From an uncultured Eubacteriales bacterium (lineage in GTDB: Bacteria; Bacillota; Clostridia; Christensenellales; Aristaeellaceae), in NCBI GenBank assembly GCA_900318145.1, contig ONJM01000009.1:93014-157013 (forward strand): a stretch of 64,000 bases of DNA, in the 5' to 3' direction. Shown piece after piece: positions 13,116 to 44,797 of the stretch (within the stretch, counting starts at the first letter, position 1; each line of letters begins with the position of its first letter). The position numbers and the translations under genes were made by a program. Below the pieces are notes generated by a model. The model was not told the DNA's origin. It did no database searches and worked only from the letters and a program-made list of their open reading frames with translations.

Positions 13116-14084
13116 ATGGATATCAGTACGCCGTATAATCTCACTGCCTACCTGATCGCAATGGGAGCGAGCGCGTTGTGCGCCTGCGCCCTGCTCTTTT
13201 TCAGCTTCCGGAAGGAGCCTGCCGTCCGCGCGGACCAGGCTCTTTCCATGAGCGCCTGCGTTCTGCTGCTGGGCTGCCTGCTCGGGATTCTGGGCGCCAA
13301 GCTGTTTTATTTCATATTCAATCTTTCCTATCTGCTGCAGCAGGATGCCGGCGCGTTCTGGACTTCCCTGCGCGCGGAGGAGCTGTCCTACTACGGCGGC
13401 GTCGCCGGTGTAACCCTCGCGGCCGCGCTGACCGGAAAGCTCTTCGGCCTTCGTCCTGTGCGGGCGCTGAACGCCTTCGCCCCTGCCGGGGCGCTGATGG
13501 CCGCCGCCGCGCGCTTTGCGGAATACTTCCTCTACCCGGTCGGAACCGGCGCCTATCTTGACGCCGCGCTGCCTTTCCCGCTGGCGGTCGGCGTCTGGTA
13601 CAGCGAGGATTATACGGAATATGTTCTGGCCGTCTTCATGTTCGAGGGCCTGGTTTCCCTGGCCGCCTTCGCGCTTTCCCTGGCGCACCGCGGCGAGCCG
13701 CGCCGTTTTCTCCGCACGCTGTTCTACCTCTGTATGCCGCAGGTCCTGCTGGAAAGCCTTCGCAATGATTCCATCAGCCTGCTGTTCATCAAACTGGAGC
13801 AGCTGACCTGCTTCCTGTTTGTGGAAGGCGTGCTGGTGTGGTACGGCTGGGCCTGCAGAAAAAAAGGCTTCTCCGCGTGGATTCCGGCCGTTGCCGGCCT
13901 CGTGGTCTGCGGGCTGACGGTTCTTGAGGAGTTTATGCTCGACGGCAAGGTGCGCGTCGGCGGCACGTTTGTTCCCGAAATCATTACCTATTCCATGATG
14001 GCCGCCGGCCTGGCGGTGCTCGCCGTCATGGAGCACCGGGGGAACCGCCTGCTTTACCTGGAAAAATCCGCGCTGGCGAAATAA
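13116..14084 (+). CDS. Lgt-like integral membrane protein, paralogue 1
   Basis: 322 residues, about seven to eight membrane helices. ATG at 13116 follows GGAGG with 8-base spacing. The order of motifs follows prolipoprotein diacylglyceryl transferase (Lgt): YYGGVAG at 92-98 where Lgt has YGGLIGG, and an arginine (R133 in ARFAEYF) where Lgt has the invariant arginine of GRxGNF. The asparagine and phenylalanine of that motif differ and the protein is longer than usual Lgt, so lipoprotein lipidation is doubtful. It lies convergent to, and overlaps by 31 bases, a NAGPA-domain gene; the same two families are paired twice more (32054-33962 and 42698-44797). A role in transferring a glycerol- or lipid-phosphate group at the membrane is an inference. 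Confidence 0.72.
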   Translation: MDISTPYNLTAYLIAMGASALCACALLFFSFRKEPAVRADQALSMSACVLLLGCLLGILGAKLFYFIFNLSYLLQQDAGAFWTSLRAEELSYYGGVAGVTLAAALTGKLFGLRPVRALNAFAPAGALMAAAARFAEYFLYPVGTGAYLDAALPFPLAVGVWYSEDYTEYVLAVFMFEGLVSLAAFALSLAHRGEPRRFLRTLFYLCMPQVLLESLRNDSISLLFIKLEQLTCFLFVEGVLVWYGWACRKKGFSAWIPAVAGLVVCGLTVLEEFMLDGKVRVGGTFVPEIITYSMMAAGLAVLAVMEHRGNRLLYLEKSALAK

Positions 14085-14989
14085 ATTATATCCCCGATAT
14101 CCCTCGCGTTGTTTTTCGTATCCTCCAGGTTTACCTGGCTCTTCAGATAAATCATCTGCGCGGAGTTTCCTCCGTCCAGCACATACAGCGTCCTGCACGA
14201 CGGCACGAGGCTGAGCGCGAAATCCCTGAACTGCGCCAGGTCCATGCCGTCCCAGCATGTCAGCACAAAATAGCTCAGCCGGTCGATCTGGCCGATGCAC
14301 ATCCGTGCCGTATGCTCGTCCGGGTTAGCGCCCCAGGGTGAATGCGCGGGATCTGTGACATATTCGTCCGCGACGGGTTCCCCGTTCAGCACCAGCGCCG
14401 GTCCGAACTGGAAGGCGTTGATCACTTTCCTGCCGTCAATCTCTTCCTTGCTGATTCCGGCAAGCTCCGGCCCGCCCGGAATCACATGGAAATCCCCTTC
14501 CTCGTCAATCATCAGCATGTCGAGTTTTTCAGCCAGCGTGTCCCGGTATATTTTCCCCTGGCGCAGGCAGAACTTGCTGCTTTCGGTCTGCACGTGGAAA
14601 TTGCTGAAATCCCCGTTGACGGCGAGCACCGCGTTCACCCGTTTGGCCATGTTCTTGGCCGGGCACCACCGGGCGCGGTTGAAATCGGTTGGATCTGCCG
14701 CCGCCGTCCGCAGCTGCGAAGCGTGCTGAATCTGCACCAGGGCATAGAAGTAGAATACCTTTCCCTGGTTCGGCACATCCGTCTTTCCCTTGAAAAACTG
14801 AACGCTGATCGTGGGATCCTCGTATGATTCGGGATTTGATTTGTATGTCTGCTTATAAGGCGCGCCGCCGGAAAGGTCGATCGGAAGTACAGCAATTTCA
14901 CTTTCCGCAAACCCCGCGGCCGCTGCCGCCGCCAGCAGCATGGTGATCAGCGCCAGCAGGCTGATCCGGATCATCGTCTTTTTTTTCAT
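14054..14989 (-). CDS. Secreted NAGPA-domain phosphodiester glycosidase, paralogue 1
   Basis: 311 residues from the ATG at 14989 (AGGAGGGAAC just upstream). Signal peptide of about 25 residues. The rest is one NAGPA (PF09992, formerly DUF2233) domain with the motifs LAVNGDF, GPALVLNG and LDGGNSAQM, which form the active site in this family. The human member removes GlcNAc from a phosphodiester on lysosomal enzymes; bacterial members are extracellular and poorly characterised. It follows the PIG-L gene (15036-16778) by 46 bases on the same strand, and its 3' end overlaps the convergent Lgt-like gene. Confidence 0.86.
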   Translation of the reverse strand: MKKKTMIRISLLALITMLLAAAAAAGFAESEIAVLPIDLSGGAPYKQTYKSNPESYEDPTISVQFFKGKTDVPNQGKVFYFYALVQIQHASQLRTAAADPTDFNRARWCPAKNMAKRVNAVLAVNGDFSNFHVQTESSKFCLRQGKIYRDTLAEKLDMLMIDEEGDFHVIPGGPELAGISKEEIDGRKVINAFQFGPALVLNGEPVADEYVTDPAHSPWGANPDEHTARMCIGQIDRLSYFVLTCWDGMDLAQFRDFALSLVPSCRTLYVLDGGNSAQMIYLKSQVNLEDTKNNARDIGDIIYFASADFSR

Positions 14990-15035
14990 GGTTCCCTCCT
15001 GCAATCTGTATATTCACGCGAATCGCACCGGATTC

Positions 15036-16778
15036 TCAGGGGATGTTTTCAAACAGGTCATCTTTTTTCACGTCTTCCCCGACCCTGGAAAAAAAGAGGC
15101 CGAAGAGGCGGTTGTCATACAGGACGCCGTGTTTGTCCATCTGGAAGGCCTCCTGCTGGGACCGGTGCTTGCTGTATGCTTCCTTTGCCAGGAAAATCGG
15201 CGTCAGCGTCTTCTCCGTCCCGTCCTCCGGGGGCCGGGTCCAGTCCATTTCAATCTGTCCCTGTTCATACAGGTGGATATATACCTTCTTTACTTCCCAG
15301 GGGTCCAGGCCGGAATCCGGATCGCAGGACGCGTCCCCCGCCAGGACGGCGGCCTCGGAAATCAGCTCCGCTGTCAGAATATGCTGTACGTGGCCGTACT
15401 CGCCGTTAAAATCGTGTGTCACCACCACTTCCGGGCGGTATTTCCGGATCACCCGCACCATTTCCAGCAGCGGATCCCGCTTCACATCCTGCGATACGTT
15501 CCTCCACATGCTTTTGGCTACGTTTATGCTGCCTACCAGGCCGTCCCGCCAGCCCATGAACACCGGATGGTATTTCATGCCTGCCGTCCACAGGCCGTCC
15601 AGCGCCTCCGCGTAGCGGTCCCGGCCGCAGTCGGCCATATAGACCACGCCGACCGTCTTTCCGGCCGCGCAGTAGAACGGAATCATTCCGCCGAAAAAGA
15701 GCAGCTCGTCGTCCTGATGGGCGGAGAACAGCAGCAGGTCCACCTTGTCCGGAAGGGGTTCCCACCGCTGCACCGCGAACGCCGCGTATTCCTCCGGGTA
15801 AATCCTTACGGTACCCAGGGCACACCGGCGTCCTGCCGGCGTGACCGTAATCCCGCCGACCTTGTCGTCCAGGGCAACGCTGTCCGCGTAAAAACCGGTT
15901 TCATAACGTGTTTCCGAGAGCTTTTCGCCGTTTCTTCCGGTCAGGATAACCGTGAAGTGCTCCGGCGGTTTTTTCCATTCCAGCGTCAGCAGCGCGGCGT
16001 TCACATCCGCGGGTATCTCAATTTTCAGGGAAGGATTCTCCTCCCTGGGAGACCAGGCTGATTCCACATTGCTGTCCAGCAGCGACTTGTAGGGAATTTT
16101 GCACAGGTCCGTAATGTGGCGCGGATCCTTTTCCCTGCCCGGCGCCGTAAAAAACAGCCTGCCGAGCACATACTGCTTCCCGCCGGCGCTTCCCTGGATT
16201 ACCAGCGTTTTCCGGCCGCCCGCAAGCCTGCCTGCGTTGACGCTCTGATCCATCACCGACGCGCTGACGGTGTCCGACGGCTCCTTCAGCTGCAGAACCA
16301 GCGCTTTTTCCAGCGCAAGCGCGCGCTCATCCCATATATACAGGAAAAGCGTATCCACCGCTTCCGGCGCCCAGAGGTCGCCGGAAAATGTCAGATATCC
16401 GAAAAGCGTCTGCGCCTGGATCGGGTTCTCCACCCGCAGTGTATCCGAGATGGATTCCGCCGTTTGCTCCGCCGCTTCCCCTGTCAGATCCAGCAGGTCT
16501 TTATGAATATAGCCGGTTTTCCCGTTGGCTTCCGCGAAATAATGGATTCCCTCCCTGCCGAGCACAGACACGGCCGTCCCCTTTTTCAGGCGGATCCGCT
16601 CCCCGGATTCGAAGCTCCCGACGGAAAAGGTCGCGGCGTTATTGACCGTCCCCAGCATCCTGAAGGACTGCGGACAGGAGCTTGTGAAGCCGGACGCGCC
16701 AGCGGCGGCGCACAGTGCGGAAAACAGCAGGCAGATCCCTGCGAGAATAACGGTAACCAGTTGCCTCGGACGCTTCAT
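15036..16778 (-). CDS. Secreted SH3-discoidin-PIG-L deacetylase, paralogue 2
   Basis: 580 residues from the ATG at 16778, which follows GGAGGAGATT. Same architecture as the gene at 1505: signal peptide, SH3 domain with an EANGKTGYIH strand, intermediate beta domains, then a PIG-L domain with intact AHQDDE and HDFNGEYGHVQH metal motifs. The C-terminal tail ending in DDLFENIP is also shared with the 1505 protein. It is predicted to remove N-acetyl groups from a surface glycan using zinc. It is the first gene of a two-gene unit with a NAGPA glycosidase, linking deacetylation with phosphodiester cleavage. Confidence 0.88.
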   Translation of the reverse strand: MKRPRQLVTVILAGICLLFSALCAAAGASGFTSSCPQSFRMLGTVNNAATFSVGSFESGERIRLKKGTAVSVLGREGIHYFAEANGKTGYIHKDLLDLTGEAAEQTAESISDTLRVENPIQAQTLFGYLTFSGDLWAPEAVDTLFLYIWDERALALEKALVLQLKEPSDTVSASVMDQSVNAGRLAGGRKTLVIQGSAGGKQYVLGRLFFTAPGREKDPRHITDLCKIPYKSLLDSNVESAWSPREENPSLKIEIPADVNAALLTLEWKKPPEHFTVILTGRNGEKLSETRYETGFYADSVALDDKVGGITVTPAGRRCALGTVRIYPEEYAAFAVQRWEPLPDKVDLLLFSAHQDDELLFFGGMIPFYCAAGKTVGVVYMADCGRDRYAEALDGLWTAGMKYHPVFMGWRDGLVGSINVAKSMWRNVSQDVKRDPLLEMVRVIRKYRPEVVVTHDFNGEYGHVQHILTAELISEAAVLAGDASCDPDSGLDPWEVKKVYIHLYEQGQIEMDWTRPPEDGTEKTLTPIFLAKEAYSKHRSQQEAFQMDKHGVLYDNRLFGLFFSRVGEDVKKDDLFENIP

Positions 16779-16811
16779 AATCTCCTCCGGCTTGCATTTC
16801 ACTGATTTTAT

Positions 16812-16841
16812 ATTATAGCATTAAACCCGATCCGCGGGCAA
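16812..16841 (-). promoter_or_regulatory. Extended -10 promoter for the PIG-L/NAGPA unit
   Basis: Reading the minus strand: TTGCCC (16836-16841), 18-base spacer, extended -10 TGCTATAAT ending at 16812. Confidence 0.6.
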
Positions 16842-17032
16842 CCGCGGCGCTTCTCCTGCCGGTTCTTTTTTGCTGTTTTTTCCCCTGCCGCCCGGCAGGT
16901 TTTTCTCCGGGAGGAGGAACAAAACCCTGTTGAAGAATCGTCAGATTTATGTAATACTTGTTTTCGTCAGAGGGGCCGGCGCGGTTGTATGAAAACGCGC
17001 GCCCCTGCAGGAAAGAAAGGAATGTATGCCAT

Positions 17033-17779
17033 ATGAAACGGATTCTCTCCCTGCTGATGCTGCTGGTGACGGTGTTCTGCGCTTCCTCCGCCGGAGCGGC
17101 CGGATCGAAGGCCTCGCCGACGCCGCCTCCCGCGGAGCTGGACGAAACCTTCACGGAAGAGATCCCCTTCGAAATTCAGAACCTGCTGGACATCGTCCGT
17201 ACCGAGCTGGAGGAGACCGGCGGGAAAAACCTGAAGAAGAAAAACAAGTACACTGCCTGGTTCAATCAGTATGAGTGGGAATGGTGCGCCGGATTTGTCA
17301 CCTGGTGCATGAAGGAAGCAGGCATTCCCCAGGAGGATTACCGCACGATCGAACCCGCGGAGAAGGAAGGCGTCTATCACGCCACCGCCTCCGCCCCCGG
17401 CAAGATGGTGGAAGGCTACTCCCGCATGTACCGGACCACCATGATCCCCCGGAAGGGCTTCATCGCCGTTTACGGCAGCAAAAACTACGGAAAATTCTGG
17501 CATGTGGGCTTCGTGTATGATGTGGAAAAGCTCGATAACGGCCGGCTCCGCCTCACCACCATCGAGGGAAATGTGAACAACCACAGCGTATGCATGTTTG
17601 TCCGGGATTATGATCCCCGCAGCGAAAAGAAAACCTCCAACTTTTTCCAGGTGCCAAAGGACGAACGCGTCCGGGAGGAGGATAAGACTTTCTCCTACAA
17701 GTTCACCTACAATGACAAAACCCAGTATGTAACGATGTTCCTGATGCCCTGGGTCCCGGAGTCCGCCGGAGAGGAGTAA
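17033..17779 (+). CDS. Secreted CHAP-type cysteine amidase
   Basis: 248 residues. Signal peptide (hydrophobic core LLMLLVTVFC, residues 6-15, cleavage near 23) and a proline-rich linker, then a papain-like CHAP domain. The catalytic cysteine is in EWCAGFVTWC (about residue 85) and the histidine in WHVGFVYDV (about 162). CHAP enzymes cut peptide cross-bridges or the amide link of peptidoglycan. The ATG at 17033 is preceded by GAAAGG. An earlier in-frame start would give a non-signal N-terminus. It lies between the envelope-modifying PIG-L gene and a lipid-type synthase and has its own strong terminator. Confidence 0.82.
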   Translation: MKRILSLLMLLVTVFCASSAGAAGSKASPTPPPAELDETFTEEIPFEIQNLLDIVRTELEETGGKNLKKKNKYTAWFNQYEWEWCAGFVTWCMKEAGIPQEDYRTIEPAEKEGVYHATASAPGKMVEGYSRMYRTTMIPRKGFIAVYGSKNYGKFWHVGFVYDVEKLDNGRLRLTTIEGNVNNHSVCMFVRDYDPRSEKKTSNFFQVPKDERVREEDKTFSYKFTYNDKTQYVTMFLMPWVPESAGEE

Positions 17780-17792
17780 TACAGGCCGTTCC

Positions 17793-17832
17793 GCACCGGA
17801 TCTCCCGAAGAAGGAGATCCGGTGCTGTTTTT
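17793..17832 (+). terminator. Strong intrinsic terminator after the CHAP gene
   Basis: Perfect 13-bp stem (17793-17805 with 17813-17825), 7-base loop, then TGTTTTT. Confidence 0.9.
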
Positions 17833-17880
17833 GGGCGGTTTTCCGGCCAAAAATGATTTGTATGCACAAACCGCAAAACA

Positions 17881-17889
17881 TGATATAAT
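17881..17889 (+). promoter_or_regulatory. Extended -10 promoter for the acyl-ligase/ACP/AOS gene
   Basis: TGATATAAT with the TG at 17881-17882 and TATAAT at 17884-17889. TTGTAT lies 20 bases upstream, a long spacer. About 100 bases of leader follow before the AAGGAGG site at 17984-17990. Confidence 0.55.
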
Positions 17890-17995
17890 GAGATGATGCG
17901 GTTGTGACGGGGCTTTATTGCTGTTTTATACGTCCTTATTTTCACCCCGCTCCCGCAGGACAAACGCTCAAGCCGACATTCGGAAGGAGGCCATC

Positions 17996-20900
17996 ATGAG
18001 CAATATGGATATTCTGCAGGTCAGCGCGCGTCTGGAGGAAGACCGCCGGCTCTGCGTCCTGTTTGACATTCTGCGGGATTACGGGGACACGCCTGCCGCT
18101 CTCTGGCTGAAGGGAGACAAGGAGCTGTCCCTTTCCTTCGCGGAAATGACCCGCCGGGCGGACGATTACGCCGCGTATCTTACCGCCAATACGCCTGAAG
18201 GCGGCTGGATCGCCATCGCCGTGGACACCTGCCCCAACTGGCCCACCCTGTTCTGGGGCGTCATCCGTTCAGGGCACAACGTGCTGCTGCTGGACGCCTC
18301 CGCGGCGGACAGTATGGTGCAGAGCCTCCTGGAGGAAGCGGGCTGCAAAGTGATCATCTCCCGCAAGCCCCGGGGGCTGACCGGCGATATCCGGCAGATC
18401 GACTATAAAGCCGTCGCCGACTCGCCGCGCACCATCGGCTTCACCCCTGTCTGGGGCGATTATGTGGCCATGTGCACCAGCGGAACCACCGGCCGCAGCC
18501 GGATCTTCGCCTATTCCGGCGCGGCAGTCTGCGAACAGGCGCTGGCCACCGTGCAGATTCACCGGGAGAACACCCGGATCATCCGGGAGGATAACCGCGG
18601 CCGCCGCGCGCTGGCTTTCCTGCCTTTCCATCATGTGCTGGGTTTTATGGCCAACGTTGTGCTGGTTCCCTTCTGCGGCGCTGCCAACGTGTACCTGCCG
18701 GACCGGACGCCCAATTCCATCATGAACGTCTGCCGTCACTTCCCGCCCAACCTGCTGATCGTCGTGCCGCTTGTCGGCAACAACCTGATCAAGTCCCTGA
18801 AGAAATCGGTCAAAAAGGAAAAGCCCTTCAGGCGCTGGCTTTTTAAAGTTTCCTCCGCCCTGTCGCTGGGCGTGCAGTCCGTGGCGCCGTCTTTCGGCCT
18901 GCGCCTCGCGGAAAAAAAGCTTTTTGCTTCCGTTGATTCCCGCCTGCTGGGCACTGAGGTGGACGTGGTGATTCTCGGCGGCAGCCATACGCCGCTGGAA
19001 ACCCTGCGCACCCTGAACGCCCTGGGGTACTACACCGTCAACGGTTTCGGAATGACCGAAACCGCCATCAACGGTTTTGAAACCTCCCTGAGCCTGCGCA
19101 AAAGGCTGAACGGCTCTGTCGGCGCCACCCTCGGCGCCGCCGAGTACCGCATTGCCGGCGGGGAAAACGCCGCGGGGGAACTGCAGATCCGCGGTGCCGG
19201 CATTCATTCCGGCCGCGTTGTGAAGGGCGAAATCCTTCCGCCGGATACGCTGGACGGCGGCTGGTTCCCGACCGGCGACGTCGCGAAGATGGACGCTTCC
19301 GGCCGTGTTTTCATCAAAGGGCGCCTGAAGGATGTCATCATCAACGAATCCGGTGAAAACGTCTATCCGGATGATCTGGAGGATTCCTTCGCTTCCCTTC
19401 CCGGCGTGGAGCAGCTCTGCGTGGTGGGCTTCCCCCGCAACAAGCGGGATAACAACGAGGACGTGGTCCTCGTGCTGAATGTCGGCGAGAACTACACCGA
19501 CAAGAATTACCTGAACGCGCTGGCCGGCAGAATCGCCGCGGTCAACGCGCGGCTCCCCCTCTACGCCCAGCTGGACCGGGCGCTCGTCACACCCATGTCC
19601 CTGCCCCTGGTCAGCGGAATCAAGGTCAAGCGGATAGAGCTGAAGCGCCTGTATGAAGAGAAGGAACTGATCTACAAGGAGCTGGATCTCCGGGCGCAGA
19701 GCGCCGGCGCGGAAGTGGCCGTTTCCGAAAAAGCCCGCACCAAGTCCGCCGTGCAGGATGAAATCCGCAGGAAGGTCCGGGCGATGTACGCGGAAGCCCT
19801 GGATATCCCGGAGAAGGAAATCTCCGACAGCGCGAATTTCATCGAGGATCTGCAGGGCGACAGCCTCCAGGTGCTCAGTATTGCCCTGAAAGCCGAAGAG
19901 GAATGGGGAATCACCATTCCCGCCGAAGAATACGGCCAGTGCGCCACCGTGGAGAGCATGTCCCGCGTGGTGGAGGATCTGCTGAACGGCACCGCCGATA
20001 CCGGCAAACCACGGGAACGCGTTCCCGTGCGTCCCATCACGCGCTTCGAGGATTCCCCCGAATACCTGCATTTCCTGGAACGCCAGAAGGCGCTCGTCGG
20101 AAACGGTGACAATCCCTATTTCGTCGCCCATGAGTCGCCCCTGCTGGATACCGGCATCGTCGACGGAAAGGAAATTCTCGAATTCGGCAGCTACAATTAT
20201 GTCGGAATGAGCGGCCGAAAGGAAGTCATGGACGCCGCGAAGGCTGCCATCGACAAATACGGCACCAGCGCCAGCGGCAGCCGCCTGCTGGCCGGTGAAA
20301 AAATGATCCACAAGGAGCTGGAAAAAGAACTGGCCGACTGGAAGCATACCGAGGACGCCATCGTCTGCGTCGGCGGCCATTCCACCAATGTCACCTTCGT
20401 GGGCAACTTCTGCGGCAAAAATGACCTGATTCTTTACGACGCCCTGGCCCACAATTCCATCGAGCAGGGCTGCAAGCTGAGCGACGCGACGTCCCGGCCC
20501 TTCCCCCACAGTGATGTGGCGGCGCTGGAAACCATCCTGAAGAGCCAGCGCGCCTATTTCGAAAAAGTCCTTATCGTCATTGAGGGTGCCTACAGCATGG
20601 ACGGCGATATCGCTCCCGTGCCGGATTTTGTCCGTGTCAAGAAGGAGTACGGCTGCTTCCTCATGGTGGACGAGGCCCACAGCGCCTGCGTCATCGGCGA
20701 GCACGGCGGCGGCGTGGACGAGTACTTCAATCTGGACGGCAATGATATCGATATCAAGTACGGCACCCTTTCCAAGGGCCTGGGCACCTGCGGCGGCTAT
20801 CTGGCCGGAAAGAAGTGCCTGATTGATTACCTACGGTACAATATGCCCGGCTTTGTCTTCTCCGTCGGTATTTCCCCGGCGCTTGCCGCCGGCTCCCTGG

Positions 20901-21262: not shown

Positions 21263-21310
21263 TCTCATTATCTGACGGCCGCCGGCCGCTGTTATGAGGA
21301 GGATATTGTT

Positions 21311-21448
21311 ATGGAAACCGGAGTAGTTGTAGCCATCGCCGTCGTTCTCTTTATTGCTGTCTTCGCGGTTCTGATCTGCGTTTTCGGCAGCGTGGCCGGA
21401 ACAGTCAGTGCCATCAAGCACACCAATGATGAGGACACCCAGGCGTAA
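21311..21448 (+). CDS. Small single-pass membrane protein
   Basis: 45 residues, with a GAGGAGG ribosome site eight bases before the ATG. It has one long hydrophobic helix (residues about 4-33) and a polar C-terminus, KHTNDEDTQA. It lies 48 bases after the acyl-ligase/ACP/AOS gene and before a terminator, so it is probably in the same transcript. Its function is unknown; an anchoring or scaffolding role for the synthase is a guess. It resembles no family I recognise. Confidence 0.65.
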   Translation: METGVVVAIAVVLFIAVFAVLICVFGSVAGTVSAIKHTNDEDTQA

Positions 21449-21472
21449 ACGCGGAGCCTGAGGCGGCATCGG

Positions 21473-21518
21473 AAAAGGGCGCGGACAGATTCCTGTCAGG
21501 ATCTGTCCTGCGCCCTTT
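21473..21518. terminator. Bidirectional terminator between the AOS unit and mnmG
   Basis: A long stem pairs 21477-21490 with 21501-21515, with a small internal bulge, flanked by AAAA on the left and TTTT on the right, so it can stop transcripts from both sides. The mnmG stop codon (21496-21498) lies in the loop. Confidence 0.75.
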
Positions 21519-32053: not shown

Positions 32054-33013
32054 ATGATGCGAAAAATCCTGTGTGCCCTGTGTCTTCTCTCCGTTTTCCT
32101 GCTTGTCTTCACCGCGTCCGCGGAGCAGGACGGTATCACTGTAAAGGAGGAGGACGGCGGCGAATTCCGGCCGCTTCCCGTCAGTCTGGAGGGCGGTTCT
32201 CCTCTGCCCTTCACCTATAAATACAATCAGAAGCTCTCTTTTTATGAGGATCCCACCATCCGGGTGGACCGTTATCGGGTAGACCATTCCGAATGGGGTG
32301 TCACTTACTGGTACGCGGACATTACCATCCGGGATCCTTCCCAGATCCGTACGGCCGCCGCCGATGAAAACACTCCTTTTACCGGCTCCGCCATGGTGCC
32401 CGGCACAGTGATCGCGAAACGGAAAAAAGCGGTGCTGGCCGTCGACGGAGACTACTGCGCCTCCTTCTCGGGGCAGAAGCCTCCGAATTATATTCTCCGG
32501 CAGGGCACCGTTTACCGGGATATCGTTACGCCCAACCTGGAAATCCTGCTGATCGATGAGGATGGGGACTTCCATGTCGTCCGTCCCGCCGGCACGGATC
32601 TGGAAACGCTGGACAAGACCACCGTGGACGGGAAAAAGGTCATCAACGCCCTGCAGTTCGGCCCCGCTCTTGTGCTGAACGGGGAGCCCGTTCCGGATGA
32701 GGTGGTCCTGGATTACGACCGCTCCCCGACATATTCCGAACCGGACCGCCGCGCGCAGCGCATGTGCATCTGCCAGATTGATAAACTGCGCTACAGGGCT
32801 GTCAGCTGCGCGAACTACGGTACGGATCTTGCCACTTTCCGGGATCTGGTGATGTCCCTGGGCCCTGTTCAGACCGCGTATATGCTCGACGGCGGAGAAT
32901 CCTCCCAGATGGTTTTTCTCGGCCACCGCATCAATACGCCCAACTCCTCCAACGGAAAGGACCGCGGCCTTACAGACGCGATCTATTTCGCCAGCGCCTG
33001 GTTTACTGACTGA
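32054..33013 (+). CDS. Secreted NAGPA-domain phosphodiester glycosidase, paralogue 2
   Basis: 319 residues. Signal peptide (about 1-23, ending TASAEQ) then a single NAGPA domain with LAVDGDYC, GPALVLNGEPV and LDGGESSQM motifs. It is close in sequence to the protein at 14054-14989, sharing the YEDPTI, QIRTAAAD and GDFHV segments, so the two are recent paralogues. The Lgt-like gene follows 22 bases later on the same strand. Role inferred: cleaving sugar-phosphodiester links outside the cell. The exact substrate is unknown. Confidence 0.86.
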   Translation: MMRKILCALCLLSVFLLVFTASAEQDGITVKEEDGGEFRPLPVSLEGGSPLPFTYKYNQKLSFYEDPTIRVDRYRVDHSEWGVTYWYADITIRDPSQIRTAAADENTPFTGSAMVPGTVIAKRKKAVLAVDGDYCASFSGQKPPNYILRQGTVYRDIVTPNLEILLIDEDGDFHVVRPAGTDLETLDKTTVDGKKVINALQFGPALVLNGEPVPDEVVLDYDRSPTYSEPDRRAQRMCICQIDKLRYRAVSCANYGTDLATFRDLVMSLGPVQTAYMLDGGESSQMVFLGHRINTPNSSNGKDRGLTDAIYFASAWFTD

Positions 33014-33035: not shown

Positions 33036-33962
33036 ATGGAAGTACGCCTTGTACCTTACCTGATTTTTACCGGATGCAGTGCGGCCGCCTGCATCCTCTG
33101 GTTTTTCCTTGCGGACCGGCAGCGCCGCCCGGACGGAAAATCCCTGTCCCTCAGCCTGCTGATCCTGCTGCTGGGCGTGCTGTCCGGCGCGGCCTGCGCC
33201 CGCCTTGTCTGGGTCCTTTTCCGGATCATGATGCGCCCGCCGCTTTTCGCCCTGCCCGTAGAGGAACTCTCGTATTACGGCGGGGTCGCCGGAGTGATCC
33301 TGGCTGTAGCCGCGGCGGCGCGCGTCTGCGGGCGCGGCCCCCGGGAAACCCTGAACACCTTCGTGCCCGCGGGCGCTTTCCTGGCGGCAATGTTCCGCTT
33401 TGCGGAAGGCTTCCTCGGCACGCTCGGTTTCGGCACCTATCTGGAGGAAGGAATCTTCTTCCCCGTCACGGTTGAAATCGTCTGGGATGAATACTTCAGT
33501 GAATATTACATCGCGGTTTTTATGCTGGAAGGATTCCTTGGCCTCGCTGCCATGGTATTCGCGCTCCTGCGCGCAAAGGACCGGAACCGCTGGATCCGTA
33601 CGCTGTTCTATCTCTGCCTTCCGCAGGTTCTCTGTGAAAGCCTCCGGATCCAGTCCATCCGCTGGCTCTTTATCCGTGCGGAACAGCTGGTCTGCTTTCT
33701 CCTGTGCGAAGGTGTGCTTGTGTGGTACGCGCTGCGCCGCGGCCCGCGCGGCCTTCGTTCCTGGTTTCCCGCGCTTACGGGGCTCCTCGTCTGCGGGCTG
33801 GTGATTGCCGTCGAATTTGCCCTGGACGGAAAAATCACCGTCGGCGGCCAGGGGCTTTCCCCCTGGCTGCTGTATGCGCTCATGGCCGCCGGCCTTTGCG
33901 CTATGGCCGCCGCCGAGCACTGCGCGCACGGCACGGACAGCCGGGCTGTCTCAGGCCGCTGA
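33036..33962 (+). CDS. Lgt-like integral membrane protein, paralogue 2
   Basis: 308 residues, mainly membrane helices. It shares with the 13116 protein the EELSYYGGVAGV block (about residues 76-87), the FVPAGA-RFAEGF block with the Lgt-type arginine, and an EYYIAVFMLEG helix at the place of the LYE helix of Lgt. The start is ATG at 33036 with a GGAG ribosome site at about 33021. Co-directional and 22 bases behind a NAGPA gene. It keeps the general Lgt plan but not the conserved asparagine, so it is unlikely to be the housekeeping lipoprotein enzyme. Confidence 0.72.
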   Translation: MEVRLVPYLIFTGCSAAACILWFFLADRQRRPDGKSLSLSLLILLLGVLSGAACARLVWVLFRIMMRPPLFALPVEELSYYGGVAGVILAVAAAARVCGRGPRETLNTFVPAGAFLAAMFRFAEGFLGTLGFGTYLEEGIFFPVTVEIVWDEYFSEYYIAVFMLEGFLGLAAMVFALLRAKDRNRWIRTLFYLCLPQVLCESLRIQSIRWLFIRAEQLVCFLLCEGVLVWYALRRGPRGLRSWFPALTGLLVCGLVIAVEFALDGKITVGGQGLSPWLLYALMAAGLCAMAAAEHCAHGTDSRAVSGR

Positions 33963-37571: not shown

Positions 37572-37651
37572 GAACTTACCTCCTGTTCATATTGTAAACC
37601 GTTTTTCCCTGCGAAAAGGCACGAAAAAAACAGTCTCCCGCTTATCTACAA

Positions 37652-37680
37652 ATTATATGCGCACCGGTCTTGAATGTCAA
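37652..37680 (-). promoter_or_regulatory. Consensus sigma-A promoter for nifJ
   Basis: Minus strand: TTGACA (37675-37680), 17-base spacer, TATAAT (37652-37657), a perfect match to consensus. The leader is about 75 bases. Confidence 0.85.
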
Positions 37681-37687
37681 TGAATAG

Positions 37688-37717
37688 TTGCCTTTTGTAA
37701 CGCTTTTGTGATAGTAT
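37688..37717 (+). promoter_or_regulatory. Promoter for argS
   Basis: TTGCCT at 37688-37693, 18-base spacer, TAGTAT at 37712-37717; an AT-rich stretch extends downstream. It lies back-to-back with the nifJ promoter. Confidence 0.5.
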
Positions 37718-37791
37718 ATATTGGTTTATTGTGGATCTGTCTTTACAGGCAATTCCGCCGTTTTTCATTTATTTTCCCGGAGGAAATAATC

Positions 37792-39510: not shown

Positions 39511-39660
39511 TCCGCCCGGGAAGCCCTTCGGCAGGCTGCAAAGGAATTTTGCAAAAAGAAAGAAGGATTTTTACAATCCTGTGACGAACTTTTTAAGGAA
39601 AGATGATTATTTCCCAGGAATCCTTCCCGGATAACGTTTTTCAAAGGCAGGTGTAAATCC

Positions 39661-40824
39661 ATGAGCAGAAAGAGAAAAAAGAGCAAAGCTGTCCCGGTGG
39701 TGCTGATTATCACCATCCTGGTGGCCGCCCTGGCCGCAGGCTGCTTCCTGGTCAAGCCCCTCGTCACGGATCCGATCCGGAAAGCTTCCGCCGCGGATCT
39801 GGCGAAGAAACAGGCGGAAGTAACCAAACAGAATGAGGAGATCATGGCGGAGTATTACGCCGCGATCGAAGACCTGAAAAACGAGCATGACGCGGCTTCC
39901 AGGTCAGCCGCCAATCCCTCCTGGCCGGATCATAAGTCCGAGGGCTGGGATGTGATTGATCTGACCAATTATCCGCTGGAAAACCAGTCGGCCACCGTCG
40001 CCTCCCGGGCGGATCTGATGACCGGCGGTATGCTGCTGGTCAACGAATGGCATTCCCGCCCCGCTGATTTTGACGATTCAAAGGTGGTCAGCGTCGGAAA
40101 ATACCTGGGCGGAAATTCCAAAATCCAGACCAAGGATTATAACGTCCTCCTCTTCACCAACGCCTGCGACGCTCTGATGGAGGCGCTCAACGCCGCCAGG
40201 GCTGAAGGCATGGAACATTACCTGGTGGAGGAAGGCTACCGTTCCTGGGAAACCCAGAACACCTACTTCCAGAATAAAATGGACAAGCTGAAGGACCGGT
40301 ATTCCGGGGACGCGCTCATCGCCGCGGCGAAAAAGGAAGTCAACTACCCCGGCACCAGCGAATTCAACTCCGGCCTGGCCTTCACCCTCCGTCTCTATGA
40401 CAAGAGCAATCCGGAGGTCGCGAAGCCCAAGTACTCCACCACCGATCAGGGCAAGTGGATGAACGAAAACTGCTGGAAGTACGGTCTCGCGGTCCGCTTC
40501 CCGTTGGAAAGCTGGCCGCTGGAAACCACGCAGGACAAGAGCTTTAAAACCGGCGTCACCGTTAAGCTGAACCTGTACCGTTTCGTCGGAAAAGGCAACG
40601 CCGCGGTCATGCACTACTTCGACTTCTGCATGGAGGAATACATCGAATACCTCCAGGAGCATCCCCATATCGCGGTCTTTGAGGACGGAACGCTGAAGTA
40701 TGAAATCTACCGCCAGTATGTCGGGGACGCCGCTTCCTTCAATCTCCAGCTGACCCGCAGCGCCCGTTCCTACACCTCCTCCCTCGACAACATGGGAGCG
40801 GTCATCACCGTATTCGAATACTGA
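39661..40824 (+). CDS. VanY/M15-like membrane-anchored protein lacking zinc ligands
   Basis: 387 residues. A positively charged N-terminus and one membrane helix (about 10-32) anchor it, followed by a coiled-coil-like linker and a domain with the layout of D-Ala-D-Ala carboxypeptidase VanY (M15B): VEEGYRSWETQ and YPGTSEFNSGLAF. In VanY the equivalent block is SxHxxGxAxD, where H and D bind zinc; here S233 is present but F235 replaces the histidine and T242 the aspartate. The later EPWH histidine motif is not seen either. It may be a non-catalytic peptidoglycan-binding relative. It is followed one base later by an SDR gene. Confidence 0.65.
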   Translation: MSRKRKKSKAVPVVLIITILVAALAAGCFLVKPLVTDPIRKASAADLAKKQAEVTKQNEEIMAEYYAAIEDLKNEHDAASRSAANPSWPDHKSEGWDVIDLTNYPLENQSATVASRADLMTGGMLLVNEWHSRPADFDDSKVVSVGKYLGGNSKIQTKDYNVLLFTNACDALMEALNAARAEGMEHYLVEEGYRSWETQNTYFQNKMDKLKDRYSGDALIAAAKKEVNYPGTSEFNSGLAFTLRLYDKSNPEVAKPKYSTTDQGKWMNENCWKYGLAVRFPLESWPLETTQDKSFKTGVTVKLNLYRFVGKGNAAVMHYFDFCMEEYIEYLQEHPHIAVFEDGTLKYEIYRQYVGDAASFNLQLTRSARSYTSSLDNMGAVITVFEY

Positions 40825-40825
40825 T

Positions 40826-41548
40826 ATGAGCACCCTTCTGATTACCGGCGCTTCACGGGGCATCGGCCGGGCCATGGCGCTGGCGTGCGCCCGGTCCGGA
40901 AAATACAGTAAAATAATACTCAACGGCGGATCGGACGCCGCCGCGCTGGAAGAGACCTCCCGCCTTGTTGCCTCGGCGGGGGATCTTCTTTGTTGTTCTT
41001 CCCTGGGAGACGCGGGCGATCTTGCCTATGTGGAGGATCTCCGCCGGCGTTTCGGTCCGGTTAACGTACTGGTGAACAATGCCGCCGTTTCCCGCGTCGG
41101 CCTTCTTACAGACCTGGCGCCGGAGGACTGGGACATCCTGTTCCGGACCAATGTAACCTCCCTGTATAACACATGCCATACCTTCGTTCCGGACATGGTT
41201 TCCGCGCAGTCCGGGAAAATCCTGAACATCTCCTCCGTGTGGGGAATCGCGGGAGCTTCCTGCGAAGTCGCCTACAGCGCCGCCAAGGGCGCCGTCAACG
41301 CCTTCACACGCGCGCTGGCCCGGGAACTCGCGCCGTCCCATATCCAGGTAAATGCCCTGGCCCCGGGCATCGTGAACACCCGGATGAACGCCCGCCTTTC
41401 CGAAAAAGAAACCGCGGAAATCGTTTCACAGATTCCCGCGGGATATATTGCCTCTCCGGAGGAAGTGGCGGAAGCCGCTCTCCGTATTCTGGAGATGCCG
41501 GAGTATTTCAACGGCGAAGTTGTCCGTCTCGACGGCTGCTGGACCTGA
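40826..41548 (+). CDS. Short-chain dehydrogenase/reductase, FabG-like
   Basis: 240 residues. NAD(P)-binding TGASRGIG near the N-terminus, NNAAVS, catalytic Ser (SSVWG), Tyr/Lys pair in YSAAKGA, and the PGIVNT motif give a classical SDR. The ending with VVRLDGCWT resembles 3-oxoacyl-ACP reductase (FabG), but sugar or other alcohol substrates are possible. It starts one base after the VanY-like stop, so the two are likely co-translated. Confidence 0.88.
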   Translation: MSTLLITGASRGIGRAMALACARSGKYSKIILNGGSDAAALEETSRLVASAGDLLCCSSLGDAGDLAYVEDLRRRFGPVNVLVNNAAVSRVGLLTDLAPEDWDILFRTNVTSLYNTCHTFVPDMVSAQSGKILNISSVWGIAGASCEVAYSAAKGAVNAFTRALARELAPSHIQVNALAPGIVNTRMNARLSEKETAEIVSQIPAGYIASPEEVAEAALRILEMPEYFNGEVVRLDGCWT

Positions 41549-41570
41549 CATGACCGCCGCCGGCCGCCGG

Positions 41571-42518
41571 TCATTTCCGTTTCTTTTCCTGCTTTTCCTG
41601 TTTCTTTACCTGTTCGGATGAATACGCCTGGTTCACATACCAGTCCTTCCCGTCTGTTTCCATTACAATGCTCCCGTAGCTGGTCCGCTTCCACGCGATG
41701 CCCGCGCCGTTCAGCTGCTTCAGGCATTCCTCTGTTCGGTTGACCTTTCCGGTCATAATCACCAGCTTTGGATCCACCGCCTTCAGAAGGTCTGTGTTCA
41801 CTGCCGTTTTTCCGTGGTGGGGCGCCTTCAGGATATCCGATTTCAGCTTTCCGCTGCCGTAATCCGCCGCCAGCATTTTCTGGATCGTTCCGCCGATGTC
41901 CGCCGTCAGCAGGATGGAGCATTCACCGAACCGGGCATGCAGCACGGCGCTCATATCGTTCACATCCATGCCTCTTCCGTCCGGCTTTTTCGTTTCTCCG
42001 TCATAACGGTATACGGTCATCTCCGCGGCGCCCAGGGTCAGTACGTCCCCGTTAAATACCTGGCGGAAAGGTATTTCCCTGTTCTGCAGGACCCGCGCCG
42101 TTTTCCGCTGCAGGTCCAGAATCCCGTATGCCCAGTAATTCTCCGGAAACGGCGACATGAAAACGTCCGTCGTGATCTGTTCCAGCTTCAGGGCGTTGTA
42201 TACCGCTTCCAGATGATCGTCATGCGGATGGGAACTGAAAATAATATCGGGATGCTCCCAGCCGTGCTCCTTCAGGAAATCCACCAGATCCTTCCTTTTC
42301 GGACCGTTCCCGCCGTCCAGCAGCATCGACTGTCCTCCGCATTCGAAAACGAAGGAATCACAGTCAAGCGCGTACAGCGCGTAAATCCGCAGCAGGTCCC
42401 GTTCCTCCCAGTCCGCCGGTTTTTCCTGGTCAATATACACTTCAGCCTGCCCGGCGCAGATCATCACAGCCAGAAGAAACAGTATGCAAATCATTTCCCG
42501 GATCAGTCTGCGAATCAT
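41571..42518 (-). CDS. Secreted ComEC-like metallo-beta-lactamase-fold hydrolase
   Basis: 315 residues from the ATG at 42518 with AAGGAG upstream. The N-terminal hydrophobic segment (about 8-25) is a signal or anchor. The MBL fold shows SSHPHDDHLEAV (the HxHxDH-like metal motif, here HPHDDH), TADIGG, and PHHG, the arrangement in ComEC-type MBL domains. These are extracellular hydrolases of nucleic acids or phosphodiesters in some cases, but no function is proven for this form. It is convergent to the SDR gene. Confidence 0.8.
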   Translation of the reverse strand: MIRRLIREMICILFLLAVMICAGQAEVYIDQEKPADWEERDLLRIYALYALDCDSFVFECGGQSMLLDGGNGPKRKDLVDFLKEHGWEHPDIIFSSHPHDDHLEAVYNALKLEQITTDVFMSPFPENYWAYGILDLQRKTARVLQNREIPFRQVFNGDVLTLGAAEMTVYRYDGETKKPDGRGMDVNDMSAVLHARFGECSILLTADIGGTIQKMLAADYGSGKLKSDILKAPHHGKTAVNTDLLKAVDPKLVIMTGKVNRTEECLKQLNGAGIAWKRTSYGSIVMETDGKDWYVNQAYSSEQVKKQEKQEKKRK

Positions 42519-42697
42519 TTCATTGCTCCTTTTATGCCGGAATACCGGCAGCTTTTTATACCATTTTTTTTCGCTGACCGTCAAGCTCTTCCCCGCTTTC
42601 CGTCCCGCGCTGAATGTCCCCGAAACTGTACAAAGCAGCCGGAACGTGGTATATTATCTGGGTTATAAACCTGTTGAAAGGTGAAAGGGGAAGGCGT

Positions 42698-43732
42698 ATG
42701 GACCGTTCAGTGCTCCGGTGGATTCTCGCCGCGCTCATGGCGCTGGCGCTGGCCTTTGTCCTTTCCTGCCCTTATGAGGCGGAAGCGGAAATCGTCATAG
42801 ACGACTGGGAGGAAATCCTTCCCGTTGCCCTTCCGCTGGATTACAGGGAGGGCGGAAAACCGCTGCGGGAGGACCGTTGGGTGCTGAACGGAAAAAAACC
42901 GGTCTCCTATTCGGATTCCACCATCCAGGTTACCTTTGAGACGGACTCCGTTACCCACAAGCTCAGATCCGGCAATCATAAAGGCAAAACCGTGACGGAC
43001 GATATCTGGATTGCCCGGATTAAAATCATGCACGTATCCCAGCTCCGTACCGCGGTTTCCTACGATACCTATAAAAGCGACGGCCGGGCGAAATCCACCC
43101 GGATCGCCCTGGAAAAAAACGCTGTCGTCGCCATGAACGGAGACTATTTCAAGGTTGAAAACACCGACGCGGGATATATCGTCCGTCAGGGCGAACTGAT
43201 CCGGGACGCCACCCATAACGCCCGCGGCCTTGTCTTTGACACGCTGCTCATCGACAGCGAAGGCGATTTTCATGTGGTTTACGCCGCGGTTACGGAAACC
43301 ATTGAAGCATATATCCGTGAAAATCTGGAGCCGCTGGGCCGCACCGTACTGGATTCCTTCAATATCGGTCCGGTTCTTGTGCTCAACGGGGAAGTGCAGG
43401 ACGTTGCCCATTCCGAAGTCACAAAGCACGGGGACAAGCGGGAAGGCATGTTCCAGTGGTCCACTCCGATTCAGCGGATCGCCATCGTACAGACGGGGCA
43501 TCTGGAATACGCCATCGTCGCCGCCAACGGAGAAGGCGAACGCAGATCCGGTTTCACCATGGCCGAATTCGCGGCGATTGTGGCGGAACGGTGTCCCGGC
43601 GCCATCCTCGCCTACAATCTGGACGGGGGCGGTTCCGCTCAGCTCGTCGCGCACGGGGCCAAACTTTTTACCAACAAATACAACGCCCGTCATATATGCG
43701 ATATGATCTATTTCGCTTCTGCCGAGGAGTAA
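42698..43732 (+). CDS. Secreted NAGPA-domain phosphodiester glycosidase, paralogue 3
   Basis: 344 residues from the ATG at 42698 (AGGGGAAGG ribosome site). Signal peptide (about 1-26), then a NAGPA domain with VAMNGDYF, GPVLVLNGEV and LDGGGSAQL motifs. More diverged than paralogues 1 and 2 and with a longer mid region. It is followed 3 bases later by the third Lgt-like gene and then by a serine hydrolase, forming a three-gene unit. A -10 of TATATT with TGTACA 17 bases upstream (42627-42655) may drive it. Confidence 0.85.
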   Translation: MDRSVLRWILAALMALALAFVLSCPYEAEAEIVIDDWEEILPVALPLDYREGGKPLREDRWVLNGKKPVSYSDSTIQVTFETDSVTHKLRSGNHKGKTVTDDIWIARIKIMHVSQLRTAVSYDTYKSDGRAKSTRIALEKNAVVAMNGDYFKVENTDAGYIVRQGELIRDATHNARGLVFDTLLIDSEGDFHVVYAAVTETIEAYIRENLEPLGRTVLDSFNIGPVLVLNGEVQDVAHSEVTKHGDKREGMFQWSTPIQRIAIVQTGHLEYAIVAANGEGERRSGFTMAEFAAIVAERCPGAILAYNLDGGGSAQLVAHGAKLFTNKYNARHICDMIYFASAEE

Positions 43733-43735
43733 CCT

Positions 43736-44797
43736 ATGGAACCGATTCAGCTTGGGCCGCTCAGGCTTTTCCCTTTCGGGCTTATCACCGCGTTCCTGCT
43801 GCTGCCTTTTTTTGTGTGGGCGGCACATCTCATGCGGAAAAACGACCTGAAGCGGGAAACCGCAAGCTGGTTCGCCCTTCTGGCTGTGCCTTTCTCCCTG
43901 ATACTCTCCCGGCTCGGTTTCTGTCTGCTGATCCTGGACCGGCTGACCGGCCTGCGTGATCCCGGCTTTTTCTTCCGTTTCGGCGAAGGCGGTTTCCTCC
44001 TCTGGGGCGCGGTTGCCGGCGCGCTGCTGGCAGCGGCGGTTGCCGGAAAAATCACGAAGCAGTCCGGCGCGGCAATCGCGGATTCAGTAATCGCTCCCTT
44101 CTGCCTGCTGATTTCCGCGATCCGTCTCCTCTGCGGGCTCCTGTTCAGGGATATCGGCGTCGGTCTCTCGCTGGAGGACTGGTTTGCCCCGGAAGTCACG
44201 GATTATGCCTACCGTTTCAGTCTCTTCAGGCTGGAAAACTATTCCTTCTTTGAGCGATTCCCCTTTGCCGTGCAGGATTATTACGGCAGCTGGTGCTGGG
44301 CTGTTTTCGTGCTGCAGGCGCTCTGGGCCGGCTGCATTCCCCTCTTTCTCCGGCAGCCGCACGCTGCCCCCGGCGGCAGGACCGTTCTTTTCGTCATCCT
44401 GTACGCCGCCGGAACCATGGTGACGGAGTCCATGCTCGTCGGCGGCCATATCCTTTCCCTGCCCTGGCAGAGCTTCATCAAAGCCAATGAACTGCTCAGC
44501 GCTGTCATCCTGGCCGCCGTTCTCCCTGTCTGTATCCGCCGGATTCCGGCCGGGCAGCGGCTGAGAGCGGCCGCCCCCGCGTTCCTCTGCTTCCTCTCCG
44601 CGATCGGCGTCGTGATCCTGATGGAATTCGCCGCCTACGACAAGCGGATTTCCTGGATTGAATGGCTCCCGGCGGACGCCTGCCATGTGCTCACGGCGCT
44701 GGCCTGCCTGGCGGTCATTCTGTCCTTCCGTTCCTTATGGGAAAAGGCGTATGCGCCCTCGGCCCCTGAAAAAAACAATCTGGGAGAAAAGCCATGA
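43736..44797 (+). CDS. Lgt-like integral membrane protein, paralogue 3
   Basis: 353 residues, eight or so membrane helices. The most diverged of the three: the YYGG block is replaced by FLLWGAVAG, but the spacing to the helix with an arginine (AIRLLCG) is kept. Loss of the tyrosine-glycine-glycine residues makes lipoprotein acyltransferase activity unlikely. Identification rests on this positional similarity and on its place just after a NAGPA gene. It overlaps the next start by ATGA (44794-44797). Confidence 0.6.
   Translation: MEPIQLGPLRLFPFGLITAFLLLPFFVWAAHLMRKNDLKRETASWFALLAVPFSLILSRLGFCLLILDRLTGLRDPGFFFRFGEGGFLLWGAVAGALLAAAVAGKITKQSGAAIADSVIAPFCLLISAIRLLCGLLFRDIGVGLSLEDWFAPEVTDYAYRFSLFRLENYSFFERFPFAVQDYYGSWCWAVFVLQALWAGCIPLFLRQPHAAPGGRTVLFVILYAAGTMVTESMLVGGHILSLPWQSFIKANELLSAVILAAVLPVCIRRIPAGQRLRAAAPAFLCFLSAIGVVILMEFAAYDKRISWIEWLPADACHVLTALACLAVILSFRSLWEKAYAPSAPEKNNLGEKP

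What the first reader, a model, noticed from the sequence alone, without database searches (positions are those of the whole stretch)
13116..44797. Three NAGPA glycosidase / Lgt-like membrane protein pairs
Three loci each hold a secreted NAGPA-domain protein beside an Lgt-like multi-helix membrane protein: 14054-14989 with 13116-14084 (convergent, overlapping), 32054-33013 with 33036-33962 (22-base gap), and 42698-43732 with 43736-44797 (3-base gap). NAGPA enzymes cleave sugar phosphodiesters; Lgt transfers the diacylglyceryl part of phosphatidylglycerol. Repeated pairing in both orientations suggests selection, not chance. Inference: they jointly attach and release a phospholipid-derived group on a surface glycan.
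Basis: partly seen in the sequence, partly recalled or inferred. Interest (0 to 1): 0.88.

Follow-up and report, generated by a model that had tools for sequence, protein, structure and literature searches.

The report
Paired surface glycosidase and altered Lgt
In a family of gut and rumen bacteria, a changed copy of a lipid-attaching membrane enzyme is usually encoded next to a secreted sugar-phosphate-cleaving enzyme, and the two have been copied and inherited together many times, which points to an undescribed way of editing lipids or glycans on the cell surface.

The parts
13107..14084 (+). Pair 1, Lgt-like membrane protein (325 aa)
   Evidence: PF01790 45.1 bits; N146 to E, R239 to Q and a C-terminal EFMLDG motif
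14054..15004 (-). Pair 1, secreted NAGPA protein (316 aa; the ATG at 14989 is an alternative start); convergent, 31-nt overlap with its partner
   Evidence: PF09992 61.1 bits
32054..33013 (+). Pair 2, secreted NAGPA protein (319 aa)
   Evidence: PF09992 64.4 bits; AlphaFold model pLDDT 87.8 matches NAGPA catalytic domains, Foldseek E 1.4e-14
33036..33962 (+). Pair 2, Lgt-like membrane protein (308 aa), nine predicted helices long enough to span the membrane
42614..43732 (+). Pair 3, secreted NAGPA protein (372 aa; the ATG at 42698 is a likelier start)
   Evidence: PF09992 68.9 bits
43736..44797 (+). Pair 3, Lgt-like membrane protein (353 aa)
   Evidence: PF01790 47.2 bits; C-terminal EFAAYDK motif
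44794..45936 (+). Serine beta-lactamase / D-aminopeptidase-like protein overlapping the end of pair 3 by 4 nt; a same-family gene follows a pair in L052
   Evidence: PF00144 134 bits; L052 neighbour PF00144 142 bits
15036..16802 (-). PIG-L deacetylase-family protein with an SH3-type domain, beside the NAGPA of pair 1 on the same strand
   Evidence: PF02585 51.4 bits
47677..49728 (+). PIG-L-like plus NAGPA fusion (683 aa), no Lgt-like neighbour
   Evidence: PF09992 74.4 bits; PF02585 21.4 bits, below its cut-off of 28.2; PIG-L in the same open frame as NAGPA in 7 of 10 genomes

Best explanation
These are copies of a two-gene cell-envelope module that spread inside one bacterial family. SHOWN by calculation: a signal-peptide-bearing NAGPA-fold protein and a nine-helix Lgt-fold protein are encoded together, duplicate together, co-diverge and are under purifying selection. 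The Lgt-fold protein keeps part of Lgt's conserved network (R143, E243, R246) but replaces N146 by Glu and R239 by Gln, and it carries a conserved acidic motif ([EQ][FY]xx[DE]) that predicted topology puts at the outer membrane face. INFERRED: the Lgt-like protein is a neofunctionalised member of the Lgt fold that binds a membrane phospholipid whose head group is not plain glycerol, most likely a sugar phosphate. It presents it, or transfers its lipid part, at the outer face, and the paired NAGPA cleaves or transfers the sugar at the sugar-1-phosphodiester bond. Different copies would have diverged for different sugars or acceptors. The PIG-L (GlcNAc-deacetylase family) domains fused to or beside NAGPA suggest GlcNAc-type sugars. 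I hold it about 0.95 likely that the pair is a real functional unit and about 0.35 likely that this is its chemistry.
For: Pairing: 41 of 54 against 0 of 10 canonical Lgt in ten genomes; 27 of 29 against 0 of 15 in 17 genomes of other genera (two rows moved to canonical); NAGPA immediately adjacent in 17 of 20 named loci. Same-strand gaps have a median of 15 nt in 45 pairs. Trees match: 50 pairs r 0.89 (shuffle maximum 0.17), 20 thinned pairs r 0.83 (maximum 0.38), 47 non-redundant pairs r 0.89. The NAGPA and Lgt-like families are the ones shared across unrelated loci (35 and 34 of 41 regions; the next family is in 9, all one locus type). Fold of both proteins. Residues in 53 representatives: R143 50, N146 to E 48, R239 to Q 38, E243 53, R246 45, motif 52. 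Control: 18 of 18 canonical Lgt read have N146, N149, E151 and R239, and none has the motif. The motif pattern is in the last 110 residues of 12 of 288 other proteins. Loop charges mostly alternate and put the motif outside. Paired NAGPA keep R236, D279-G280-G281, D133 and R304 in 50 of 50. PIG-L lies within 2.5 kb of NAGPA for 12 of 29, in one frame for 7. One conserved locus also carries GT2-GtrA and a second, partial Lgt-like gene.
Against: No substrate, reaction or physical contact was tested. Thirteen of 54 and 2 of 29 paralogs have no NAGPA within 1 kb, and 62 of 103 NAGPA domains have no Lgt-like partner within 1 kb. One paired LGT match (G041 C21) has neither the Glu/Gln changes nor the motif, and it also lacks R143, R239 and E243, so the residue pattern is not universal among pairs. 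Three of 53 representatives keep R239. The extra C-terminal helices are not special to the paralogs: canonical Lgt of the genus are also long (most 327-375 aa) and three of them match the profile to position 304-306; only the motif is. Canonical Lgt was not found in 8 of 25 genus genomes, all incomplete (58-85%), so retention everywhere is not shown. Most neighbours are unrelated. Obvious glycan pathways are not universal: Stealth in 2 of 10, TagF-like in 8 of 10, and 2 of 10 genomes have pairs but no PIG-L match. Matching trees may reflect joint duplication and not direct interaction. The PlsC-like match at the conserved locus is below its cut-off.
Confidence: 0.35

Rival explanations
1. One reading: the Lgt-like protein still transfers diacylglyceryl from phosphatidylglycerol, but to a surface glycan (or to the NAGPA protein), and NAGPA releases it.
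For: Lgt fold with R143, E243 and R246 mostly kept; NAGPA fold intact.
Against: N146 and R239 are replaced; in E. coli R239A/E/H/K/Q and N146A are inactive (PMC4728403, PMC13251419, passages), while canonical Lgt of the same family keep both (18 of 18). Only 6 of 50 paired NAGPA have even a lipobox-like cysteine, so most NAGPA are not the lipidated product.
Confidence: 0.15
2. The Lgt-like protein is no longer an enzyme. It is a membrane anchor, chaperone or sensor for its own NAGPA, and lipid binding only positions the complex.
For: Loss of two residues essential in E. coli Lgt; pairing and co-divergence.
Against: The substitutions are fairly uniform (Glu in 48 of 53, Gln in 38 of 53) and a charged motif is kept in 52 of 53; decayed enzymes usually vary freely at such positions.
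Confidence: 0.25
3. NAGPA works as a retaining transglycosylase on polyprenyl-phosphate sugars, and the Lgt-like protein binds the polyprenyl-phosphate carrier.
For: The locus found in 9 of the ten genomes fetched around this gene pairs them with a GT2-GtrA protein, a family that includes polyprenyl-phosphate-sugar synthases (family function recalled). Polyprenyl-phosphate sugars are sugar-1-phosphodiesters.
Against: GT2-GtrA is seen at one locus type only. The known ligand of the Lgt fold is phosphatidylglycerol (5azb title).
Confidence: 0.2
4. Passive hitchhiking: the two genes happened to be adjacent once and were copied together without a shared function.
For: Joint duplication alone would give matching trees. 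Three family genomes (G059, G234, G286) have NAGPA genes but no paralog was printed for them.
Against: Pairs stay together between diverged copies (17-31% identity to the first sequence for most rows) while other neighbours change; small gaps; purifying selection on both genes; the two family genomes without any NAGPA (G223, G296) also show no paralog.
Confidence: 0.05

Closest known systems
Lgt, phosphatidylglycerol:prolipoprotein diacylglyceryl transferase (PF01790; E. coli Lgt 5azb)
   Different: N146 to Glu and R239 to Gln, no N149, E151 mostly lost, an acidic C-terminal motif, and the tie to NAGPA. In the ten genomes compared a canonical lgt is present elsewhere.
Lgt homologs lacking R143 and R239 in Deinococci, Acidimicrobiales and others (PMC13251419, passage)
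   Same: Divergent Lgt-fold proteins that lost donor-site residues; the authors suggest another substrate or mechanism.
   Different: Here R143 is mostly kept, the substitutions are specific, and there is a NAGPA partner. Pairing in those taxa was not tested here.
NAGPA / DUF2233, 'uncovering enzyme' (vertebrate NAGPA 6pki, 6pkg, 6pku; bacterial BACOVA_00430 3ohg)
   Same: Fold (Foldseek E 1.4e-14 to 6pki and 1.7e-12 to 3ohg) and the R...DGG core.
   Different: The paired class has its own signatures: YxDx[TS]IxV, and NGD where the two relatives aligned (5h3k, 6u11) have Gly at the Asp position. It has a membrane partner.
NAGPA fused to TelC Lipocone or calcineurin-like domains (PMC12419801, PMC11488536, passages)
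   Same: NAGPA combined with lipid or phosphoester chemistry at the cell surface.
   Different: Fusions within large surface proteins; no Lgt relation in the passages seen.

Membership tests
Lgt (prolipoprotein diacylglyceryl transferase) | Lgt fold / PF01790 homology | tested here: met
Lgt (prolipoprotein diacylglyceryl transferase) | R143, N146 and R239 of the catalytic site | tested here: not met
   R143 in 50 of 53, but N146 in 0 of 53 (Glu in 48) and R239 in 3 of 53 (Gln in 38); kept in 18 of 18 canonical Lgt of the family; essential in E. coli per PMC4728403 and PMC13251419 (passages)
Lgt (prolipoprotein diacylglyceryl transferase) | NCBIfam equivalog score for lgt | tested here: not met
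   Lgt-model scores of 15-19 bits against cut-offs of 118.9-636 for two proteins; no lgt model listed for the third
Lgt (prolipoprotein diacylglyceryl transferase) | Transfers diacylglyceryl from phosphatidylglycerol to a lipobox cysteine | not testable with these tools
   Needs an enzyme assay; only 6 of 50 partner NAGPA have a lipobox-like cysteine in the first 70 residues
NAGPA phosphodiester glycosidase | PF09992 homology and NAGPA fold | tested here: met
   61-69 bits against a cut-off of 25; Foldseek E 1.4e-14 to 6pki
NAGPA phosphodiester glycosidase | Conserved Arg and DGG core | tested here: met
   R236 and D279-G280-G281 in 50 of 50 paired proteins; correspondence to the catalytic residues of vertebrate NAGPA was not traced
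NAGPA phosphodiester glycosidase | Hydrolyses GlcNAc-1-phosphodiesters | not testable with these tools
   Needs an enzyme assay

The most novel reading that the evidence does not exclude
A new class of extracytoplasmic enzyme pair: an Lgt fold rebuilt with a Glu/Gln centre and an outer-face acidic motif works on sugar-phosphate lipids instead of phosphatidylglycerol and shares its substrate directly with a dedicated NAGPA glycosidase. Two to six diverged pairs per genome would each write or erase a different phosphodiester-linked glycolipid on the envelope of rumen and gut bacteria.
Probability: 0.3. Interest if true: 0.8.

Novelty: new variant of a known kind. Interest (0 to 1): 0.62.

Why it matters
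Lgt is usually treated as a one-reaction fold and a drug target. A family-wide set of Lgt-fold paralogs with two essential residues replaced in a regular way, most of them tied to a phosphodiester glycosidase of their own, says that the fold has been put to other use, and it names the partner that should reveal the substrate. Bacterial NAGPA proteins have rarely been assigned a substrate (my impression from the few papers found), and a dedicated membrane partner makes theirs testable by lipidomics. The bacteria are rumen and gut Clostridia known mostly from metagenomes.

Tried and rejected
Chance adjacency: rejected. Redundant ordinary Lgt copies: rejected, because the paralogs lose N146/R239 while canonical Lgt of the same genomes keep them. 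Lgt-like proteins that lipidate their own NAGPA at a lipobox: not supported (6 of 50). H103 to Tyr as evidence of inactivity: dropped, because all 18 canonical Lgt read have Tyr there and PMC13251419 says the position varies. Extra C-terminal helices as a mark of the paralogs: dropped; canonical Lgt of the genus are long too. Substrate from Stealth or TagF glycans: not universal in ten genomes. Viral contigs: no relative found with the pair-2 protein. Context for function: of 20 proteins scanned (one is itself a paired NAGPA) most were unrelated to envelope work; LRR domains turned up at three loci, and PGA_cap, a polysaccharide deacetylase, MatE/MurJ-like and a PBP at one each. Paired against solo NAGPA: the YxDx[TS]IxV-type motif is in 47 of 50 paired and 3 of 19 hand-picked solo proteins; the later alignment of solo proteins is gappy and includes PIG-L proteins (window_13, window_3), so one search is used for the paired set only. 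The place of the C-terminal motif relative to the active site was not measured, as model coordinates were not in the Python box.

Selections and rows: the ten genomes are 10 of the 25 genus genomes seen (G000-G024), chosen as well assembled. They have 55 non-canonical LGT matches in the table, of which 54 were printed and used, fragments and sub-cut-off matches included. One search used the 44 of 49 matches printed for 17 genomes and split them by whether the match reaches position 280 of 320 (31 and 13). Reading four doubtful ones and others showed that two of the 31 (G059, G234) are canonical Lgt, so the figures given are 27 of 29 and 0 of 15; 8 of those 15 were read. Printed match lists are cut off. 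One search used the 21 of 103 NAGPA matches on contigs that also hold PIG-L and nearest to it. The 58 paralogs include two duplicate sequences; one search gives 56 distinct, 53 under 90% identity. None of these mends changes my odds.
Full report
CHECK OF THE OBSERVATION. All three pairs are present at the stated places. Pfam scores every Lgt-like protein above the LGT cut-off (45.1, 27.5 and 47.2 bits; cut-off 24.9) and every partner above the NAGPA cut-off (61.1, 64.4 and 68.9; cut-off 25). NCBIfam calls none of the three an Lgt: lgt-model scores are 15-19 bits where curated cut-offs run from 118.9 to 636, and the third protein has no lgt model listed. The window's own genome has 12 NAGPA matches and 8 LGT matches. 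One LGT match is the canonical enzyme (209 bits) on another contig, 192 kb from a NAGPA; 5 of the other 7 lie within 1 kb of a NAGPA.

MORE THAN CHANCE. For ten of the 25 genus genomes I took the printed LGT matches (54 of 55 non-canonical ones) and all NAGPA matches and measured distances. Of 54 non-canonical LGT matches, 41 lie within 1 kb of a NAGPA domain; of 10 canonical Lgt, none does. In 39 of the 41 the NAGPA gene comes first on the same strand; 2 are convergent. Five of the 13 unpaired matches sit 1.84-1.87 kb upstream of the NAGPA of another pair at one conserved locus; the other eight are simply unpaired. Of 103 NAGPA domains, 41 are in pairs. In 17 genomes of other genera, 31 printed matches that reach position 280 or beyond in the 320-position profile gave 27 pairs (26 NAGPA first), and 13 shorter ones gave none. 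Reading sequences showed that two of the 31, both unpaired (G059, G234), are canonical Lgt, so the figures are 27 of 29 against 0 of 15. A scan of genome contigs returned 20 named loci, all titled as Clostridia, Clostridiales or Ruminococcaceae MAGs; titles that name a source name goat, sheep or buffalo gut or rumen. NAGPA is the immediate neighbour in 17 of 20. In L070 a gene lies between them, in L063 my gene caller missed it although the same contig shows a NAGPA domain 52 nt away (G008 C39), and in L073 no genes were called. Three of the 20 (L061, L063, L066) are the same contigs as G013 C30, G008 C39 and G012 C22, so they are not independent.

WHAT IS CONSERVED. I called genes in 40 fetched regions and the window and clustered them. 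The regions were chosen around pairs, other LGT or NAGPA matches and canonical lgt. Orthologous loci keep their flanks: pairs 2 and 3 of the window sit between the same genes in L054. Across different loci the NAGPA family (35 of 41 regions) and the Lgt-like family (34 of 41) recur; the next family is in 9 regions, all of one locus type. For 45 same-strand pairs the gap has a median of 15 nt; 5 of 50 pairs are convergent with 16-31 nt overlaps. Trees of the two partners over 50 pairs give distance correlation 0.89 against a maximum of 0.17 in 5,000 shuffles; 20 thinned, strongly diverged pairs give 0.83 against 0.38; 47 non-redundant pairs give 0.89 against 0.15 in 2,000. The nearest neighbour agrees in 33 of 50. 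dN/dS (Nei-Gojobori) for the window genes against orthologs is about 0.22-0.38, with dS near or above 1. The pair is therefore mostly inherited and duplicated as a unit under purifying selection.

DISTRIBUTION. With the paralog profile, 270 of 297 genomes of the order gave matches; most are canonical Lgt, and outside the family no printed row ran past position 279. Paralogs (by long match, with G059 and G234 removed) are in all 6 genus genomes of that sample and in 12 of the 17 others of the family. The five without are G059, G223, G234, G286 and G296; G223 and G296 also have no NAGPA, the other three have three NAGPA each. In 398 genomes of the phylum only the own genome matched at E 1e-40 or better. 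The printed list is cut at about E 2.5e-33, so weak or very diverged copies elsewhere are not excluded. The genus is unnamed in the tools. Contig lengths equate G008 with isolate RUG111, G013 with RGIG3319 (goat reticulum) and G012 with RUG10998. I suspect Aristaeella or its family from memory; the passages seen on Aristaeella (PMC12694931) fit the habitat but prove nothing.

THE SECRETED PROTEIN. The NAGPA model (pLDDT 87.8) matches vertebrate NAGPA catalytic domains and bacterial 3ohg. Across 50 paired proteins D66, Q97, R99, D133, L165, D168, G171, G203, P204, G210, R236, Q241, L245, Y247, D279, G280, G281 and R304 are invariant among the positions tabulated. An N-terminal YxDx[TS]IxV-type motif occurs in 47 of 50 paired and 3 of 19 hand-picked solo proteins.

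CONTEXT. PIG-L domains lie within 2.5 kb of NAGPA for 12 of 29 and share its open frame in 7, two of these below the Pfam cut-off; the window has both forms. One locus type found in 9 of the ten genomes adds GT2-GtrA and, in 7, a partial Lgt-like gene; a following large protein matches PlsC-type acyltransferases below the cut-off. Other neighbours are mixed: LRR proteins (fused to NAGPA in L031; separate in L067 and L072), PGA_cap between NAGPA and Lgt-like in L056, a polysaccharide deacetylase, a beta-lactamase-type hydrolase after pair 3 and in L052, and many unrelated genes such as Rnf, UvrA, a sugar-type ABC transporter and a nucleoside phosphorylase. Stealth and TagF families are not universal.

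INTERPRETATION. Shown: a real, family-restricted (within the samples searched), repeatedly duplicated pair of an intact NAGPA fold and an Lgt fold with a changed catalytic centre. Inferred: the Lgt-like protein handles a membrane lipid with a sugar-phosphate head, and its NAGPA acts on the sugar-phosphate bond. PIG-L, NAGPA and Lgt-like together would fit a GlcNAc-phospholipid theme. Anchor or sensor, polyprenyl-phosphate and plain diacylglyceryl-transfer models remain open.

LITERATURE. Full-text searches of the held open-licence library found no paper with both Pfam accessions, none of the listed papers joining NAGPA or phosphodiester glycosidase to prolipoprotein diacylglyceryl transferase, one use of 'lgt paralog' (Leptospira) and four papers with NAGPA-family terms; some searches were seen as listings only. 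Absence from print is not proven. PMC13251419 already notes Lgt homologs lacking R143 and R239 in other phyla and proposes another substrate or mechanism (passage).

Noticed in passing
window 47677-49728: A fourth NAGPA in the window, fused to a PIG-L-like domain; the same arrangement is in 7 of 10 genus genomes searched.
   Followed up: partly
L021 6167-13991 (G000 C57) and the same locus type in L029, L036, L045, L048, L049, L053, L057, L060: A conserved locus with GT2-GtrA, in most a partial Lgt-like gene and DUF1292, then NAGPA, Lgt-like and a large protein with a weak PlsC-type match; it looks like a lipid-linked sugar cluster.
   Followed up: partly
L099 (G041 C21:11295-12170): An LGT match beside a NAGPA that lacks R143, R239, E243 and the C-terminal motif: a second divergent type of paired Lgt-like protein.
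   Followed up: partly
window 1505-12929: Likely surface-glycan genes upstream of pair 1: a PIG-L match (G000 C35:95562), a Glyphos_transf-like match (C35:101597) and a UDP-glucose 4-epimerase-like gene at 11898-12929 (named from its sequence by eye, not searched).
   Followed up: no
L031 7667-9589, L067 3149-4036, L072 6898-7848: Leucine-rich-repeat domains fused to or beside paired NAGPA genes, perhaps a surface recognition part.
   Followed up: no
L056 5831-9516: NAGPA and Lgt-like genes separated by a PGA_cap (capsule synthesis) gene in the same direction.
   Followed up: no
window 58756-59139: Small thioredoxin-like protein matching PHROG 16693 (99.6 bits) in a run of short minus-strand genes (about 53-62 kb); the other PHROG matches among ten proteins scanned there were weak, so no clear prophage.
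   Followed up: no
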